NCBI RefSeq assembly: GCF_003325455.1
Contig: NZ_CP025198.1
Coordinates: forward strand, 1,302,001 to 1,366,000
Source: Acidipropionibacterium virtanenii
Lineage (GTDB): Bacteria > Actinomycetota > Actinomycetes > Propionibacteriales > Propionibacteriaceae
Direction: 5' to 3'
Length of the DNA stretch: 64,000 nucleotides
Both the position numbers and the translations under genes were made by a program. Below, piece after piece: positions 21,723 through 43,634 of the stretch. The notes beneath the pieces are model-generated. The model was not told where the DNA came from, ran no database searches, and saw nothing but the letters and a program-made list of their open reading frames with translations. Numbering within the stretch: the stretch's first letter is position 1; each line of letters opens with the position of its first letter.

Positions 21723-21795
21723 CGGGGCGTAGCGTAGTGGCTAGCGCGCCTGCTTTGGGAGCAGGAGACCGCGGGTTCGAGTCCCGTCGCCCCGA
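21723..21795 (+). tRNA. tRNA-Pro (TGG anticodon)
   Basis: A full cloverleaf is present: acceptor arm CGGGGCG (21723-21729) pairs with CGCCCCG (21788-21794), discriminator A at 21795, anticodon stem CCTGC/GCAGG with loop TTTGGGA giving anticodon TGG, and T arm GCGGG-TTCGAGT-CCCGT. The 3' CCA is not encoded. The anticodon arm onward is duplicated at 25678-25728 as the far attachment site of the integrated element. Confidence 0.97.
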
Positions 21796-21797
21796 CG
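21747..21797 (+). repeat. Attachment-site repeat, left copy (inside tRNA-Pro)
   Basis: This 51-bp segment runs from the anticodon arm of tRNA-Pro through its 3' end and two bases beyond. It is identical to 25678-25728. Exact duplication of a tRNA 3' part is the standard mark of tyrosine-integrase site-specific integration, with this copy keeping the tRNA whole. Confidence 0.93.
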
Positions 21798-21854
21798 ACG
21801 TAGTGAGGGCCGGTTCATCGGGTGTCATGCCTAGTGGGGCGGCCCTTTCTCATT

Positions 21855-21925
21855 GATGCTGCATGGTGGCCGATGATGCGAAATGATGCTCGAATGTGGG
21901 TTGAACCCTTGCAAGGTACGAATCA
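21855..21925. repeat. Left-end sites mirrored at right end (candidate integrase arm sites)
   Basis: GATGCTGCA at 21855-21863 and GGTACGAATCA at 21915-21925 recur as reverse complements at the right end (25652-25660 and 25633-25643). In both ends the order from the att core outward is the same. Short mirrored sites next to att cores are expected of arm-type integrase or Xis binding sites. Confidence 0.5.
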
Positions 21926-21930
21926 AGCGA

Positions 21931-22305
21931 CTAGGGGCGATGCTCGGATGGCCAGGAGGACTCGTAACTTGGACGCACGAAAGCCGCCCCTCCCGCGCAA
22001 TGCGAGAGGGGCGGTTCTGTGTGTCTGGGCCAGCTCTGGTTGGTGGCGATGGCCTTGGCGTCAGGGATGCCGGAGGGCTGGGACTCGGCGATCTCACCGC
22101 TGGGGATGTTTCCCGAGTCGACGCCCTTGGCCCCGACGTGCTTCTTGGCGATCAGCGGGATGGAAACACCGGTGAGCACCAGGGCGGCGTTGAGGATGGA
22201 GCGCTACTGCTGCTCGGTGACGGCGTCGATGACCCCGATGGCCACCATGAGCGCGAAGACTGCGACTCCGACGCCGTAGATCTTGTTCCTGAGGTCCTCT
22301 GACAT
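21931..22305 (-). pseudogene. Holin-like phage membrane protein with in-frame amber codon
   Basis: From an ATG at 22305 the minus strand reads MSEDLRNKIYGVGVAVFALM and on through a hydrophobic helix to EQQ, then a TAG at 22204-22206, and continues in the same frame with RSILNAALVLTGVSIPLIAKKHVG, a second hydrophobic segment, to a stop at 21931. Two helices with a short EEQ-type linker are the layout of the small holin-like proteins next to lysins in actinobacteriophages. The family call is from this pattern only. The amber codon splits the two helices, so the gene is most likely dead. The end of the frame runs through a hairpin, so the original stop may have been lost. Confidence 0.6.
21984..22014. 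terminator. 9-bp hairpin terminator, probably bidirectional
   Basis: CCGCCCCTC (21984-21992) pairs with GAGGGGCGG (22006-22014). TTCTGTGT follows on the plus strand and CTTTCGTG on the minus strand. It closes the minus-strand phage remnant. Confidence 0.6.
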
Positions 22306-22341
22306 GGGTTCTCAAATGACTTGACGGGGTGTAAACGCGCT

Positions 22342-22407
22342 TCATGAGCCGGGCCACAGGTCGGCGGGCATCTGGGCGGTGCGGGTGGGCGTGTCCTTGC
22401 CGTTCAT
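22342..22407 (-). CDS. 21-residue reading between phage remnants
   Basis: The 21-codon reading MNGKDTPTRTAQMPADLWPGS overlaps the end of the truncated phage gene (ATGA) and ends before the holin-like gene. It could be a decayed fragment of a small phage protein. Support is only the overlapping start and position. Confidence 0.2.
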   Translation of the reverse strand: MNGKDTPTRTAQMPADLWPGS

Positions 22408-22586
22408 GCGTCGATCTCCTTGAGGGCGGGAGCCAGGCGCTCCATGGCCTCGCGGTGGATTTGGGCCTCCCATGCGCCATCCGGATGCCCCTCGCAGTCG
22501 CGGCAGGCGGCGACGGCGGCCCCGTCCCAGGACCTCGACGACTGGGGGTAGGTCGACGGGGACGAGTGATCGGAATAGAGAAGAAC
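22404..22586 (-). pseudogene. 3' fragment of a phage gene, unknown
   Basis: The minus strand from about 22586 reads in frame as ...SSPSTYPQSSRSWDG, AACRDCEGHPDGAWEAQIH and EAMERLAPALKEIDA to a TGA at 22404-22406. It contains a CxxC pair and an amphipathic C-terminal helix, and codon use is like real genes, but there is no start codon and the frame begins at the terminator of the neighbouring operon. It looks like the tail of a gene whose 5' part was deleted. I do not recognise it. Confidence 0.45.
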
Positions 22587-22613
22587 GCCCCCGCCACATG
22601 GAGTGGCGGGGGC
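22587..22613 (-). terminator. Intrinsic terminator of the RelA/SpoT operon
   Basis: GCCCCCGCCAC (22587-22597) pairs perfectly with GTGGCGGGGGC (22603-22613), 5-nt loop. On the minus strand it begins 19 nt after the stop of the 93-residue gene and is followed by GTTCTTCTCTATT, a U-rich tract. It marks the pair as an independent transcription unit. Confidence 0.85.
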
Positions 22614-22632
22614 CGGTAGAACTATCGATCGG

Positions 22633-22914
22633 TCAGACGGCTCCAGCCGTGTCCAGGATTCCTCGCAGGAGGGGGTTGGTCACCTCGGCGGCGCCGAAGT
22701 AGTTGGCGTGGGTTCTCTGCACGGTCTCGATCGAGTCAGACCCAATCAGGACGACCTCAACGTTGGCGTCGCCTTCATACTCACGCTCAAGCTTGGAATA
22801 ATCATCCACAGCATGGCGCGACTTCGTGCCATACGAGATGGTTCGCGACAGTGCCCGCTTCGCGCGGTCGTAGACGAGGATGAAGTAGTTCGTCTCATCA
22901 GAGTGCGATGCCAT
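22633..22914 (-). CDS. 93-residue partner of the RelA/SpoT protein, unknown (candidate antitoxin)
   Basis: This small protein of 93 residues has no signal peptide or membrane segment. Its core reads YFILVYDRAKRALSRTISYG, then NVEVVLIGSDSIETVQRTHA and NYFG. The pattern of two strands (FILVYD, VEVVLIG), helices between, and a SxExxxxTHxxYF end suggests a compact alpha/beta domain. I recall similar short proteins in actinobacteria but cannot name a family. The ATG is preceded by GGAGGA at 4 nt, a much stronger site than its upstream partner has, and the start lies 17 bp inside the end of the RelA/SpoT gene, so translation is coupled. Its job as antitoxin or co-factor of the synthetase is inference from this arrangement and the shared terminator. 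Confidence 0.75.
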   Translation of the reverse strand: MASHSDETNYFILVYDRAKRALSRTISYGTKSRHAVDDYSKLEREYEGDANVEVVLIGSDSIETVQRTHANYFGAAEVTNPLLRGILDTAGAV

Positions 22915-23617
22915 GATTCCTCCTCATGTACTCCTTGAACGTGGCCTCGGCTGCGTCCAGCCTACGCTTGAGACCGTCCGGGACGGTAGATGCCTTCTCG
23001 GCGCTGTCGAAGAACTGAGACACCAGTGCCATGTAGTCGAGGATCTCGGTGGGCTCCCTGTCGTGCTTCAGGTCCAGACCAGTTGCGTCCGAGAGCCGCT
23101 CGATGGTGATCGCCCACTGGTGCATGAGTTGGGTGCGGATCTGAATCTCGATGCTGCGCTCGGGATAGCTGCTCGAGCCGCCCCCGTACTTAGCGACGAT
23201 GTGGACCCCGCGATACCCGCTGGCTTGTGGGTGATCGATGTAGTCGTAGACCTTGGCATCTGGCTGCCGAGCCTGGATGCGGGCCTGCACACGGCGCACT
23301 TCCGTGGTGCTCTGAAGGACAGCCCGGCAGCCGCCCAAGTCTTGCATTCTCCACAGACTGGCTCCGGGCAGCTTGCGGAGTACCGACCGCCGCTCCTTGA
23401 GACGTTGAGACACGACGGGTTGAACGCATCCCTCGGTCTTTGTCATGGATCTGAGCCACATGGCGGCAGCGTTCATGGGTTCTTGGAAGGTCGCTCGATA
23501 CTCATCGGCAACGGCCAGAGCCGGGGTGATGTCCTCCACTGAGACGGTCTGCGGGTCTTTCAGGAAGCTGGAGAGCGTACGCCCGGCCTTGTCGACTTGG
23601 CTCCGTGTCAGTGCCAT
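22898..23617 (-). CDS. Single-domain RelA/SpoT nucleotide synthetase (toxSAS candidate)
   Basis: This 239-residue protein is a lone RelA/SpoT synthetase domain with no HD hydrolase, TGS or ACT domain. The catalytic set is visible: R90-x-x-D93-x-x-G-x-R98 (LWRMQDLGGCRAV), the nucleotide loop around YIDHPQASGYRGVHIV (S133-G-Y-R-G-x-H139), and the acidic motif E157-I-Q-I-R-T162. A helical N-terminus (1-80) and a helical C-terminus (165-239) flank it. Such enzymes move pyrophosphate from ATP to GDP/GTP, or in toxSAS members to ATP/ADP or the tRNA CCA end. The ATG at 23617 has AGGA seven bases upstream; an earlier in-frame start at 23677 lacks this. It overlaps the 93-residue gene and is divergent from the ImmA-type gene. 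Housekeeping ppGpp enzymes are much longer, so this is an accessory copy. Confidence 0.88.
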   Translation of the reverse strand: MALTRSQVDKAGRTLSSFLKDPQTVSVEDITPALAVADEYRATFQEPMNAAAMWLRSMTKTEGCVQPVVSQRLKERRSVLRKLPGASLWRMQDLGGCRAVLQSTTEVRRVQARIQARQPDAKVYDYIDHPQASGYRGVHIVAKYGGGSSSYPERSIEIQIRTQLMHQWAITIERLSDATGLDLKHDREPTEILDYMALVSQFFDSAEKASTVPDGLKRRLDAAEATFKEYMRRNHGIAL

Positions 23618-23680
23618 GGCGGAATCCTGGCACATGCGTGGCGCCTCTGATCTGTCGGTGGCCGCTGTCAGCATCACCCC

Positions 23681-24094
23681 ATGGACATCAGGGGTGACGT
23701 GACGTGGCCGTCAGAGTGGCGGCTGGCCGTCGAGGTGCTGGCGTCGGGGCGGGGACGGTGCAGGTGGGGGTCGCGGACGATCGCCATCGATCCTCGGCTC
23801 ACACCGGAAGAGCGAGCAGCGACGATAGCCCATGAGCTCGTCCACGCGTCGTGGGGTCCGTGTCCGGGCTGGGCGAAGGCGGGCGAGGAACGGACGGTGC
23901 ACCGGCTGGCCGCCCGCGCGCTGATCGCCCCTGACGTGCTGGCCGCCGAACTCCAGTGGTCTCCTGACCCGCGCGTGGTCGCCTTCGACCTCGGCGTCAC
24001 CTGCGGCCTGGCCGGCGCCAGACTCGACGGGCTCGACATCGCGGAACGGGACCGGCTGCGGGCTGCTACGGCCCACCATCGGGACGGCGCGTGA
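23681..24094 (+). CDS. ImmA/IrrE-type metallopeptidase
   Basis: This 137-residue protein has the zinc motif H51-E52-L-V-H55 and a third acidic ligand in AGEERTVHRLAARALI (E69 or E70), the arrangement of ImmA/IrrE peptidases. In ICEBs1 and many phages these cleave a repressor to induce the element. The start at 23681 lacks a good Shine-Dalgarno; a GTG at 23699 with AGGGG upstream is a possible alternative. The ATG is only 63 bp from the divergent RelA/SpoT start, so one short region must hold both promoters. No ImmR-like helix-turn-helix repressor remains in the element. Confidence 0.8.
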   Translation: MDIRGDVTWPSEWRLAVEVLASGRGRCRWGSRTIAIDPRLTPEERAATIAHELVHASWGPCPGWAKAGEERTVHRLAARALIAPDVLAAELQWSPDPRVVAFDLGVTCGLAGARLDGLDIAERDRLRAATAHHRDGA

Positions 24095-24166
24095 ACCGTC
24101 AGACGTCGGTGGGAGCATCATCACGTGGACGCCATGGCGGCGCCCCGTCCATCCCGAGGAGAACTG

Positions 24167-24724
24167 ATGAACAAGGCTGTGTGCGCCATGGCGGCGCTCG
24201 CGCTCATCCCAGCGCTGACCGGATGCGGAGACAAGGCGGCTGATGCGACGCCGACGCCGACGGTGACACAGCAGGTGGCATCACCTTCCCCTGCGCCGAC
24301 GGCGCCGTCTCCGAGCCAGTCGGACCCGATTCCACGTCTGTTCGGGCATGAGGTGCATTTCGGCGGGGATGATTACCCGTTCACGGTCACGTCGACCGTG
24401 AGGAAGTCGGGGAAATTCACCGACCCGCTCACCAATGCACTGCTCACCGGGATCTACGCGCGATCCTGCGTGGACAGGACGACATCAGGCAGCGACCTCG
24501 ACCAGGGGCTCGGGTGGTGGAGGTGGACCGCGATTGAGGCGAACGGAACGCAGCGCGACGGGGCGAACTCCAAGATCGACCTCCCCAGTCAGCGGATGTA
24601 TCCGTTCACCCAGTCCGTCGCTCCAGCGGCCGGGCAGTGCTTCGAGGGATGGGTGCTGTTCGACGGAGCCTTCACTGTCTCTCAGGTTGCGCAGTTCGGC
24701 GAACTCGGATGGCGGAGCAATTGA
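24167..24724 (+). CDS. Secreted lipoprotein, unknown
   Basis: This 185-residue protein starts MNKAVCAMAALALIPALTGC, a signal peptide with lipobox LTGC and lipidated C20, then a Thr/Pro/Ser-rich linker (residues 25-60) and a globular domain of about 120 residues with two Cys that could form a disulfide and several Trp. Start at 24167 chosen for GAGGAG seven bases upstream and because it begins the signal peptide. It is expressed in the same direction as the ImmA-type gene and may be a lysogenic-conversion gene. I cannot name the domain; small prophage lipoproteins can block superinfection at the surface, which is only a possibility here. Confidence 0.8.
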   Translation: MNKAVCAMAALALIPALTGCGDKAADATPTPTVTQQVASPSPAPTAPSPSQSDPIPRLFGHEVHFGGDDYPFTVTSTVRKSGKFTDPLTNALLTGIYARSCVDRTTSGSDLDQGLGWWRWTAIEANGTQRDGANSKIDLPSQRMYPFTQSVAPAAGQCFEGWVLFDGAFTVSQVAQFGELGWRSN

Positions 24725-24764
24725 CCTTGACGTTGGAGCCACGGCAGGTTGGGCGATCCGACTG

Positions 24765-25635
24765 ATGGCCGTCCAGGATCTGTGGTTCAACCCCCGCAGG
24801 GAGCGTACCCAGGTACGGCAGGGGCAGGCGGTACCGGGTGGTGGTGAAGGGCTGGCCGTCGACGGCGTGCAGGACGAAGGTGGAGGCGGAGTCGCGACGT
24901 CGCGGTCTCCGACGTCGATCCGGTCGAGGTGCAGGCGTGGATCGCTGGCCTGTCCACGCCATCCGGCCCAGCCTCCGCCTCCCTCAAGCACAAGACCCTC
25001 CAGTGCCTCACCGGTGCCCCGGGGCGGCGCGCTGATCTGTCAATGGTCAGGGTGCCGAAGGAAGTGCGACGCGAGGCCGTCTTCCTGGACGTCGCGCAGC
25101 TGCGAGAGCTTGCCAGGCTGGCAGGCGAGACGCGCCAGCCGGGGGGGGGGGGGGGGGCTCCGAGGCGCTCGTGTGGCTGCTTGGGACGACGGGGCTTCGA
25201 ATCGGAGAGGCGTGCGCCCTGAACGTGGGCGACGTCGACGTGGTGCGCCGCCGGCTGCGGGTGCGCCGGTCGAAGACGGGGTGGGGGAGGGATGTGCCGG
25301 TCCCCGCCTCGGTGCTGGCCATGCTGGATCTGGAGAGGCCTGCCGCCGAGCCGCTGCTGCGCACCTCGAGCGGCGGGCGGATTGACAAGGATCATTGGAG
25401 GCAGCGTCACTGGGTGCCGGCACGTGATGGACTGGGCGGCGACGGCCTGCGGATCCACGAGCCGAGGCACACGGCGGCCTCGCTGGCGATCGCCTCGGGC
25501 GCAGACCCGAAGAGCGTCCAGAGGATGCTGGGGCACGCGTCGGTGGCGATGGCCCTGGACCTGTACGCGGGACTTTTTGACCGCTCGCTGGATGATGTGG
25601 CGGCGAGGATGGATGGCCTGGTCCGCGCAAAGTGA
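24765..25635 (+). pseudogene. Tyrosine integrase, broken by several frameshifts
   Basis: The pieces of a phage integrase follow in order but in different frames: MAVQDLWFNPRRER (frame of 24765), RYGRGRRYRVVVKG and RTKVEAES (one frame on), VSDVDPVEVQAWIAGLS through ELARLAGETRQPGG (next frame), and after a run of 16 G at 25141-25156, EALVWLLGTTGLRIGEAC to the end. The catalytic part is complete: Arg in GLRIGEA, HEPRHTAASLA, LGHASVAMALDLYAG with the Tyr nucleophile. The core-binding segment also looks shortened between GLSTPSGPASASLKHK and VRVPKEVRRE. The gene ends 42 bp from the right att, the usual place for an integrase. Confidence 0.85.
25141..25156 (+). repeat. Run of 16 G in the integrase
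   Basis: Sixteen consecutive G separate two frames of the integrase. A tract of 14 or 17 G would join the upstream frame (ELARLAGETRQPGG) to the catalytic frame. Such tracts slip in replication and are also prone to sequencing or assembly error. Confidence 0.9.
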
Positions 25636-25660
25636 TTCGTACCTCGGTCGTTGCAGCATC
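25633..25660. repeat. Right-end sites mirroring the left end
   Basis: TGATTCGTACC at 25633-25643 and TGCAGCATC at 25652-25660 are reverse complements of the left-end sites at 21915-21925 and 21855-21863. The first overlaps the integrase stop codon. Confidence 0.5.
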
Positions 25661-25677
25661 CTGTGACAAGGTGACGC

Positions 25678-25728
25678 CGCCTGCTTTGGGAGCAGGAGAC
25701 CGCGGGTTCGAGTCCCGTCGCCCCGACG
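25678..25728 (+). repeat. Attachment-site repeat, right copy (tRNA-Pro 3' fragment)
   Basis: This segment is identical over 51 bp to 21747-21797. It has the anticodon arm, variable and T arms and acceptor 3' strand but no D arm or 5' acceptor strand, so it is not a second tRNA. The stop codon of marR starts at the next base. Confidence 0.93.
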
Positions 25729-42627: not shown

Positions 42628-43634
42628 CGGGCGGGCTCCTCCGGCTTGGAGGCGGCGTCGCCGGAGGTGTCCTCGGCGTCGTCCTTCGGCGACGTCTTCC
42701 CGGCACGGGAGGGATGGTGACCGGGCCTTCCCTGGCCAAGGCCCCGCGCCAAGGCCTCCATCGCCTCGCCCTGCACCGGGTCGGGGTCGAGGCGGCGCAG
42801 CTCCTCGGCCATCGCCTCGGCGATGCTGCGGCGCTCCAGGGCGACTCCTCGGGCGGGTTCCCCGGGGATGCGGTAGACGGCGGACCGGCCGTCGGTGCGG
42901 CGGATCTCGATATCGCCGGCGGCGGTCGTCAGCGACAGCGAGACGATCCCACCGGGGCCCTCGGCGTCGCGGCGCTCAACCGGGACGCCCAGCCGCTCGG
43001 CCAGCCAGGCGGTGAGCAGGGAGGTCGGCCCGTTGTGCGGGTCGGCCTCCACCCGTGCGGAGTGCACCAGGCCGGGATGCTGGTCCAGGGCGGCGGCGGC
43101 CAGGGCGCGCCACCTGGTGATTCTCGCCCAGCACAGGTCGGAGTCGCCGGCAGACATGTGTTCGGCCCGGCGCCGCAGCGCCGCGCACGGGTCGGGGGCC
43201 GAGGCAGAGTCGGAGATCCTTCGGGTGGCGAACCGCCCGATGAGGTCGTCGGCCATGTCGTCGGGGGCGTTGTGGGGCCACCAGGCGATGACCGGGGAGT
43301 CGGGCAGCAGCAGCGGCAGGACGACCGAGTCGGGGTGAGCGGCGATCTCGCCGGACATCCGCAGCACGATGACGTCGCCGGGAGTGGTCTCCCCGGCCTG
43401 GATCTCGGCGTCGAGCTTGCTGGAGCGTCCCCGTGTGTGGACGACCATCAGGACCCGGGCGGGGTGCTCGCGGGCGGCCTCCACGGCGTCGGACAGGACC
43501 GAGTCGTAGTGCGCCGAGTCGCAGATGGTGATGAGGGTGTGGACCAGCGCCGAGCTGCCCCCGACGCCGCGATGGGCCTCGATGAGGGCCGAGACGATCT
43601 TTCCGGCGGTGGTGTCGTTGAGGGTGACGATCAT
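42624..43634 (-). CDS. opcA: OpcA, glucose-6-phosphate dehydrogenase assembly/activator protein
   Basis: OpcA binds and activates Zwf in cyanobacteria and actinobacteria. The 336-residue protein starts MIVTLNDTTAGKIVSALIEAHR at 43634 with a GGAAGGAA site upstream; a more upstream Met (43673) is not needed. The N-terminal half has the LVMVVHTRG / VIVLRMSGEIAAHPDSVVLPLLLPDSPVIAWW pattern characteristic of OpcA. The C-terminal tail (about 300-336) is a low-complexity region of Ala, Pro, Lys and acidic residues. It sits between zwf and pgl. Confidence 0.95.
   Translation of the reverse strand: MIVTLNDTTAGKIVSALIEAHRGVGGSSALVHTLITICDSAHYDSVLSDAVEAAREHPARVLMVVHTRGRSSKLDAEIQAGETTPGDVIVLRMSGEIAAHPDSVVLPLLLPDSPVIAWWPHNAPDDMADDLIGRFATRRISDSASAPDPCAALRRRAEHMSAGDSDLCWARITRWRALAAAALDQHPGLVHSARVEADPHNGPTSLLTAWLAERLGVPVERRDAEGPGGIVSLSLTTAAGDIEIRRTDGRSAVYRIPGEPARGVALERRSIAEAMAEELRRLDPDPVQGEAMEALARGLGQGRPGHHPSRAGKTSPKDDAEDTSGDAASKPEEPAR

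What the first reader, a model, noticed from the sequence alone, without database searches (positions are those of the whole stretch)
22633..23617. RelA/SpoT synthetase plus overlapping 93-residue partner: candidate toxSAS defence/TA module on a prophage remnant
A lone nucleotide-synthetase domain with every catalytic residue visible (R90, D93, R98, S133-H139, E157) overlaps by 17 bp a small soluble protein that has a stronger ribosome-binding site and shares its terminator. Known toxSAS toxins (PhRel, FaRel, CapRel families) are encoded as pairs like this; in actinobacterial prophages such as Phrann a RelA/SpoT toxin and its neighbour lie between lysis and integration genes and exclude other phages. 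This pair has the same position (lysis remnant on one side, integrase on the other), and both genes are intact in an otherwise decayed element, as if selected. The partner does not look like the membrane-protein or HD-hydrolase antitoxins I know of. Antitoxin identity, alarmone chemistry and phage target are inference.
Basis: partly seen in the sequence, partly recalled or inferred. Interest (0 to 1): 0.78.

Follow-up and report, generated by a model that had tools for sequence, protein, structure and literature searches.

The report
Split CapRel toxin-antitoxin in prophage relic
Two overlapping genes left behind by a mostly deleted prophage in an actinobacterium encode a probable growth-stopping enzyme and its small inhibitor, a two-gene version of the known anti-phage protein CapRel, so this is a well-supported new example of a known kind of phage defence rather than a new kind.

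Summary
The 239-residue synthetase (22898-23617, minus strand) and the overlapping 93-residue partner (22633-22914) are the two halves of one known protein type: PADLOC PDC-S33 and phrog_4773, single-chain families, match the synthetase N-terminally and the partner C-terminally. So the partner is not an unknown antitoxin; it is the pseudo-zinc-finger antitoxin of CapRel/PhRel systems and a homologue of Phrann gp30. Of 58 loci found with the synthetase alone, 56 carry the partner next door or fused. The pair is a split (bicistronic) CapRel-type toxSAS module, an arrangement already reported for Actinobacteria.

The element is real: 51-bp tRNA-Pro att repeats flank it, a congener has the empty site, and it keeps both ends of a 45-kb prophage type whose intact relative carries the same pair. 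Selection on the pair is purifying (dN/dS 0.16-0.17) while the integrase relic is broken.

A small extra: the antitoxin's YXXY neutralisation motif reads T-H-x-x-Y-F in 43 of 44 split systems, against [Y/F]PN[Y/F] in 19 of 20 fused ones. Toxicity, tRNA modification, neutralisation and phage trigger remain inference.

The parts
22898..23617 (-). toxSAS-type RelA/SpoT synthetase (toxin), 239 aa, split CapRel type
   Evidence: PF04607 E 9.8e-15; PDC-S33 7.4e-54 over profile positions 8-223; CapRel SJ46 best PDB hit 4.3e-15
22633..22914 (-). pseudo-zinc-finger antitoxin, 93 aa, HXXY motif (H69, Y72), in +1 frame relative to the toxin
   Evidence: PDC-S33 C-terminal part 7.6e-11; hhalign to fused CapRel C-termini 97.9%, E 3.8e-13; Phrann gp30 39 bits
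22587..22613 (-). terminator-like hairpin downstream of the antitoxin
   Evidence: 11-bp stem, 10 G-C pairs, T-rich tail; shuffle mean for such sites 1.2, so not significant on its own
23681..24094 (+). M78-like (IrrE/ImmA type) metallopeptidase ORF, divergent from the toxin; prophage accessory gene
   Evidence: PF06114 6.9e-5, phrog_87 1.5e-7; same place in the intact relative L012
24893..25635 (+). tyrosine integrase relic, frame broken, N-terminal part mostly missing
   Evidence: PF00589 1.6e-17 on 25171-25635; pieces in different frames against the intact integrase
21723..21796 (+). tRNA-Pro (TGG), integration target
21747..21797 (+). attL, 51-bp direct repeat (3' part of tRNA-Pro)
25678..25728 (+). 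attR, identical 51-bp repeat
21971..22079 (.). remnant of the end of the lysis cassette
   Evidence: 76% identical to G433 43201-43304, next to amidase-like and holin-like ORFs

Best explanation
The pair is a bicistronic (split) CapRel-type toxSAS toxin-antitoxin and phage-defence module kept on the collapsed remains of a tRNA-Pro-integrated prophage. Inferred mechanism: the synthetase transfers pyrophosphate from ATP to the 3'-CCA end of tRNAs and so stops translation. In uninfected cells the small pseudo-zinc-finger partner, made from a strong ribosome-binding site inside the toxin's 3' end, docks on the ATP donor site through its H69-x-x-Y72 motif and keeps the enzyme off. A phage product that captures or displaces the partner would free the enzyme and abort the infection. 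Shown here: homology of both halves, conserved pairing, conserved active-site and interface residues, prophage context, purifying selection. Inferred: toxicity, tRNA as substrate, neutralisation, trigger and phage range.
For: Single-chain families PDC-S33 and phrog_4773 match the synthetase N-terminally and the partner C-terminally. CapRel SJ46 is the best PDB hit by sequence and by profile (1.4e-40). Partner profile against fused CapRel C-termini: 97.9%, E 3.8e-13; Phrann gp30 39 bits. Of 58 loci found with the synthetase, 56 have the partner downstream or fused (L104 and L107 by their [YF]PN[YF] motif). CapRel R79, R116, Y155, V338, L339 and Y355 are identical in the pair; R116A, V338A, L339A, Y352A or Y355A make CapRel toxic (PMC9712102). 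A linked-chain model (the two ORFs joined in silico through a +1 step) has pLDDT 90, pTM 0.76 and matches CapRel over both domains, E 3.6e-18. dN/dS against the intact prophage copy 0.16 (toxin) and 0.17 (partner), integrase relic 0.49. The split architecture is known for Actinobacteria. Donor-site neutralisation goes with tRNA-modifying toxSAS.
Against: No experiment. The first tyrosine of the YXXY motif is histidine here. Fold search with the partner alone ranks CapRel first but without significance (E 0.42). The linked chain is artificial, and no coordinates or PAE were available to confirm docking. The AU test did not fix where the housekeeping branch joins the family.
Confidence: 0.85

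Rival explanations
1. It is a toxSAS TA pair, but the enzyme makes a toxic nucleotide ((p)ppApp, like FaRel or Tas1) instead of modifying tRNA.
For: The catalytic core is shared by all RelA/SpoT synthetases; the substrate cannot be read from sequence alone.
Against: The known (pp)pApp-making toxSAS are neutralised by Tis1-like domains; a neutralising pZFD goes with tRNA-modifying ones (PMC11782079). The synthetase is nearest to CapRel by sequence.
Confidence: 0.08
2. It is a small housekeeping-type alarmone synthetase (RelQ/RelP-like) with a regulatory partner, acting in stress physiology and not in defence.
For: PF04607 matches and a RelQ-type model matches weakly; the AU test cannot exclude that the window branches next to housekeeping rows.
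Against: RelQ model 43 bits against a cutoff of 320. In related genomes the partner-bearing L002 scores 100 bits, all other synthetase hits at most 28. Housekeeping rows lack the partner. The pair is on a prophage relic.
Confidence: 0.04
3. The pair is a decayed passenger without present function.
For: The element lost most of the prophage and its integrase is broken.
Against: Both ORFs intact, active-site and interface residues kept, dN/dS 0.16-0.17 (this averages over both lineages and cannot date the collapse).
Confidence: 0.1

Closest known systems
CapRel (fused, SJ46; PDB 7ztb, 9erv), PMC9712102
   Same: Same synthetase type and same pseudo-zinc-finger antitoxin domain; ATP-site, G-loop and most interface residues kept
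   Different: Two overlapping genes here; antitoxin motif HANY instead of YPNY; synthetase about 26% identical to SJ46
Split CapRel/ATcapRel of Actinobacteria (Mycobacterium), PMC9712102 and PMC11782079
   Same: Bicistronic, pZFD antitoxin, Actinobacteria
   Different: The published sequences were not at hand for direct comparison; here on a prophage relic in the family of Arachnia (Propionibacteriaceae)
PhRel/ATphRel, Phrann gp29/gp30
   Same: Prophage-borne pair next to lysis genes; gp30 is a homologue of the partner (39 bits) and has THSRYF
   Different: gp29 lies in another, weakly placed part of the tree; gp29 and gp30 do not overlap
PADLOC PDC-S33 / phrog_4773
   Same: Cover the synthetase and the partner in one model
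   Different: Single-chain families; function given only as candidate or unknown

Membership tests
CapRel-type toxSAS (split form) | toxSYNTH domain closest to CapRel | tested here: met
   PDB best hit CapRel 4.3e-15, profile 1.4e-40; PDC-S33 7.4e-54
CapRel-type toxSAS (split form) | pseudo-zinc-finger antitoxin domain, fused or as adjacent gene | tested here: met
CapRel-type toxSAS (split form) | YXXY neutralisation motif | tested here: inconclusive
   H69-x-x-Y72: second tyrosine kept, first is His, as in 43 of 44 split systems and in Phrann gp30. In ATfaRel2 the second Y is essential, the first contributes
CapRel-type toxSAS (split form) | ATP-site arginines and G-loop tyrosine | tested here: met
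   R72, R98, Y135 = SJ46 R79, R116, Y155
CapRel-type toxSAS (split form) | toxic alone, neutralised by partner, pyrophosphorylates tRNA, defends against phage | not testable with these tools
   needs bench work
PhRel (Phrann) | synthetase groups with gp29 | tested here: inconclusive
   gp29 is not among the nearest rows and sits in another part of the tree, but the branches between are not strongly supported
RelQ/RelP housekeeping synthetases | meets curated RelQ model | tested here: not met
   43 bits against cutoff 320
FaRel-type | SAH hydrolase or Tis1-like antitoxin | tested here: not met
   no such Pfam, PADLOC or NCBIfam match in the partner

The most novel reading that the evidence does not exclude
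The neutralisation motif differs by architecture: trans-acting antitoxins of split CapRel/PhRel systems use a conserved His-x-x-Tyr lock where fused CapRels use aromatic-Pro-Asn-aromatic. On the tree the switch is a single change that coincides with the fused clade, so the histidine may serve a different, perhaps dissociable or conditional, inhibition. I found no mention of it in the papers read; one text search that included 'HXXY' gave no hit for it. One change on a tree cannot show cause, and the exception L070 is fused yet has the histidine.
Probability: 0.35. Interest if true: 0.5.

Novelty: new member of a known kind. Interest (0 to 1): 0.36.

Why it matters
It names a likely anti-phage module and its antitoxin in a group of bacteria where the split CapRel form is little studied, and gives a compact test object: a pair kept on a 4-kb relic of a prophage type whose full-length relative still carries it. 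The histidine form of the neutralisation motif gives a specific, testable difference between split and fused systems.

Tried and rejected
Partner search against phages: no match at E 0.01. Partner alone against PDB by sequence: only a chance racemase hit; by fold: CapRel first but E 0.42. Programmed +1 frameshift (AGG-AGG before the +1-frame partner) was considered: the partner frame varies among relatives (29 at +2, 11 at +1, 4 at 0), so ordinary overlap with an internal ribosome-binding site is preferred. Partner with another toxin was considered: L115 keeps a toxin fragment; L116 and L117 have no synthetase match (a ParDE-like pair and a GNAT-like ORF lie upstream by my reading of the frames); L120 starts at a contig end. 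Not pursued further. Tree tests of the deep placement were inconclusive. Asymmetric decay (toxin ORF broken in L045, L055, L058, L071 and L115; no broken partner beside an intact toxin seen) is suggestive only: the toxin is about 2.6 times longer, the cases are few and come mostly from MAGs. PDC-S33 by name in papers: nothing.

Full report
The observation. A terminator-like hairpin follows the partner.

What the pair is. PF04607 confirms the synthetase. The decisive result is that PADLOC PDC-S33 and phrog_4773, both models of single-chain proteins, match the synthetase with their N-terminal part and the partner with their C-terminal part. The nearest solved structure is CapRel SJ46. The partner's profile aligns to the C-termini of fused CapRels with 97.9% probability and scores 39 bits on Phrann gp30 (that search had only two targets, so read the bits, not the E-value).

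Conserved pairing. Scans with the synthetase alignment gave 58 loci in genome and viral collections. The partner lies directly downstream or is fused in 56; the two exceptions are domains inside giant ORFs (L104 and L107 counted by their motif). Among 397 genomes of the phylum, 12 had a partner match: seven lie by a synthetase, one by a toxin fragment (L115), two have no synthetase match upstream (L116, L117), one starts at a contig end (L120) and one is a weak match inside an unrelated protein (L119). In the careful tree the fused form is one clade (99/97) and the split form is the rest of the family; that tree left out L070, a fused gene that lies apart from the clade in the quick tree.

Motif. 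In CapRel the YXXY motif blocks the ATP donor site (PMC9712102); in ATfaRel2 the second tyrosine is essential and the first contributes (PMC11782079). Here it is H69-A-N-Y72. T-H-x-x-Y-F is found in 43 of 44 split partners and [Y/F]PN[Y/F] in 19 of 20 fused ones. L045, the split exception (TQANYF), has an in-frame stop in its toxin. L070, the fused exception, has THSHYF.

Structure. The partner alone is modelled as a strand-strand-helix-strand core with a short helix at the motif, pLDDT 81. The two window ORFs were also joined in silico through a +1 step and modelled with natural fused and split relatives as alignment: pLDDT 90, pTM 0.76. That chain matches CapRel over both domains, E 3.6e-18, with rmsd 9-10 A. 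A different domain arrangement is one possible reason for the rmsd; no coordinates were available to check docking.

The element. A 51-bp perfect repeat of the tRNA-Pro 3' part flanks 21747-25728. Congener G001 has a single copy between the same flanks. A 45-kb IMG/VR prophage record (L012/G433) carries integrase, M78-like gene, synthetase (79% identical) and partner (73%) in the same order; the window element matches its two ends, so the middle has been lost. dN/dS against that copy is 0.156 for the toxin, 0.173 for the partner, 0.39 for the M78-like ORF and 0.49 for the frame-broken integrase relic.

Mechanism. By homology (CapRel, FaRel2, PhRel; PMC9712102, PMC11782079, PMC11559606) the enzyme most likely pyrophosphorylates tRNA 3' ends, the partner blocks the ATP site, and a phage product releases it. 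For Phrann gp29/gp30, expression from a prophage defends against several unrelated phages including Tweety (PMC9262239). None of these steps was tested for this pair.

Verdict. A well-supported new member of a known kind. The split CapRel form in Actinobacteria is already described. The histidine motif is a modest, testable addition.

Noticed in passing
window 24125-24724: Open 199-aa ORF on the element that begins like a lipoprotein (signal and LTGC box by eye); no Pfam match and only weak phrog matches. A prophage surface-exclusion role would be only a guess.
   Followed up: no
L078 1110-5911: Phycicoccus MAG: synthetase domain at the C-terminal end of a 1519-aa ORF with a partner-like gene directly downstream, resembling a polymorphic toxin with immunity gene.
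   Followed up: no
L079, L080: Deltaproteobacterial MAGs: synthetase domain inside very long open frames (3455 and 2386 aa) without the partner.
   Followed up: no
L070 4983-6272: Pseudomonas oligotrophica: fused 429-aa open frame with the partner domain in the middle, histidine motif THSHYF and an extra C-terminal part.
   Followed up: partly
L116 1090-1752 and L117 1-530: Partner-like genes without any synthetase match; a ParDE-like pair (L116) and a GNAT-like ORF (L117) lie upstream by my reading of the frames. They may be orphans or antitoxins of something else.
   Followed up: partly
window 23618-23680: Only 63 bp separate the divergent toxin and M78-like genes, and the spacing is similar in L012 (65 bp), so they may share a control region.
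   Followed up: partly
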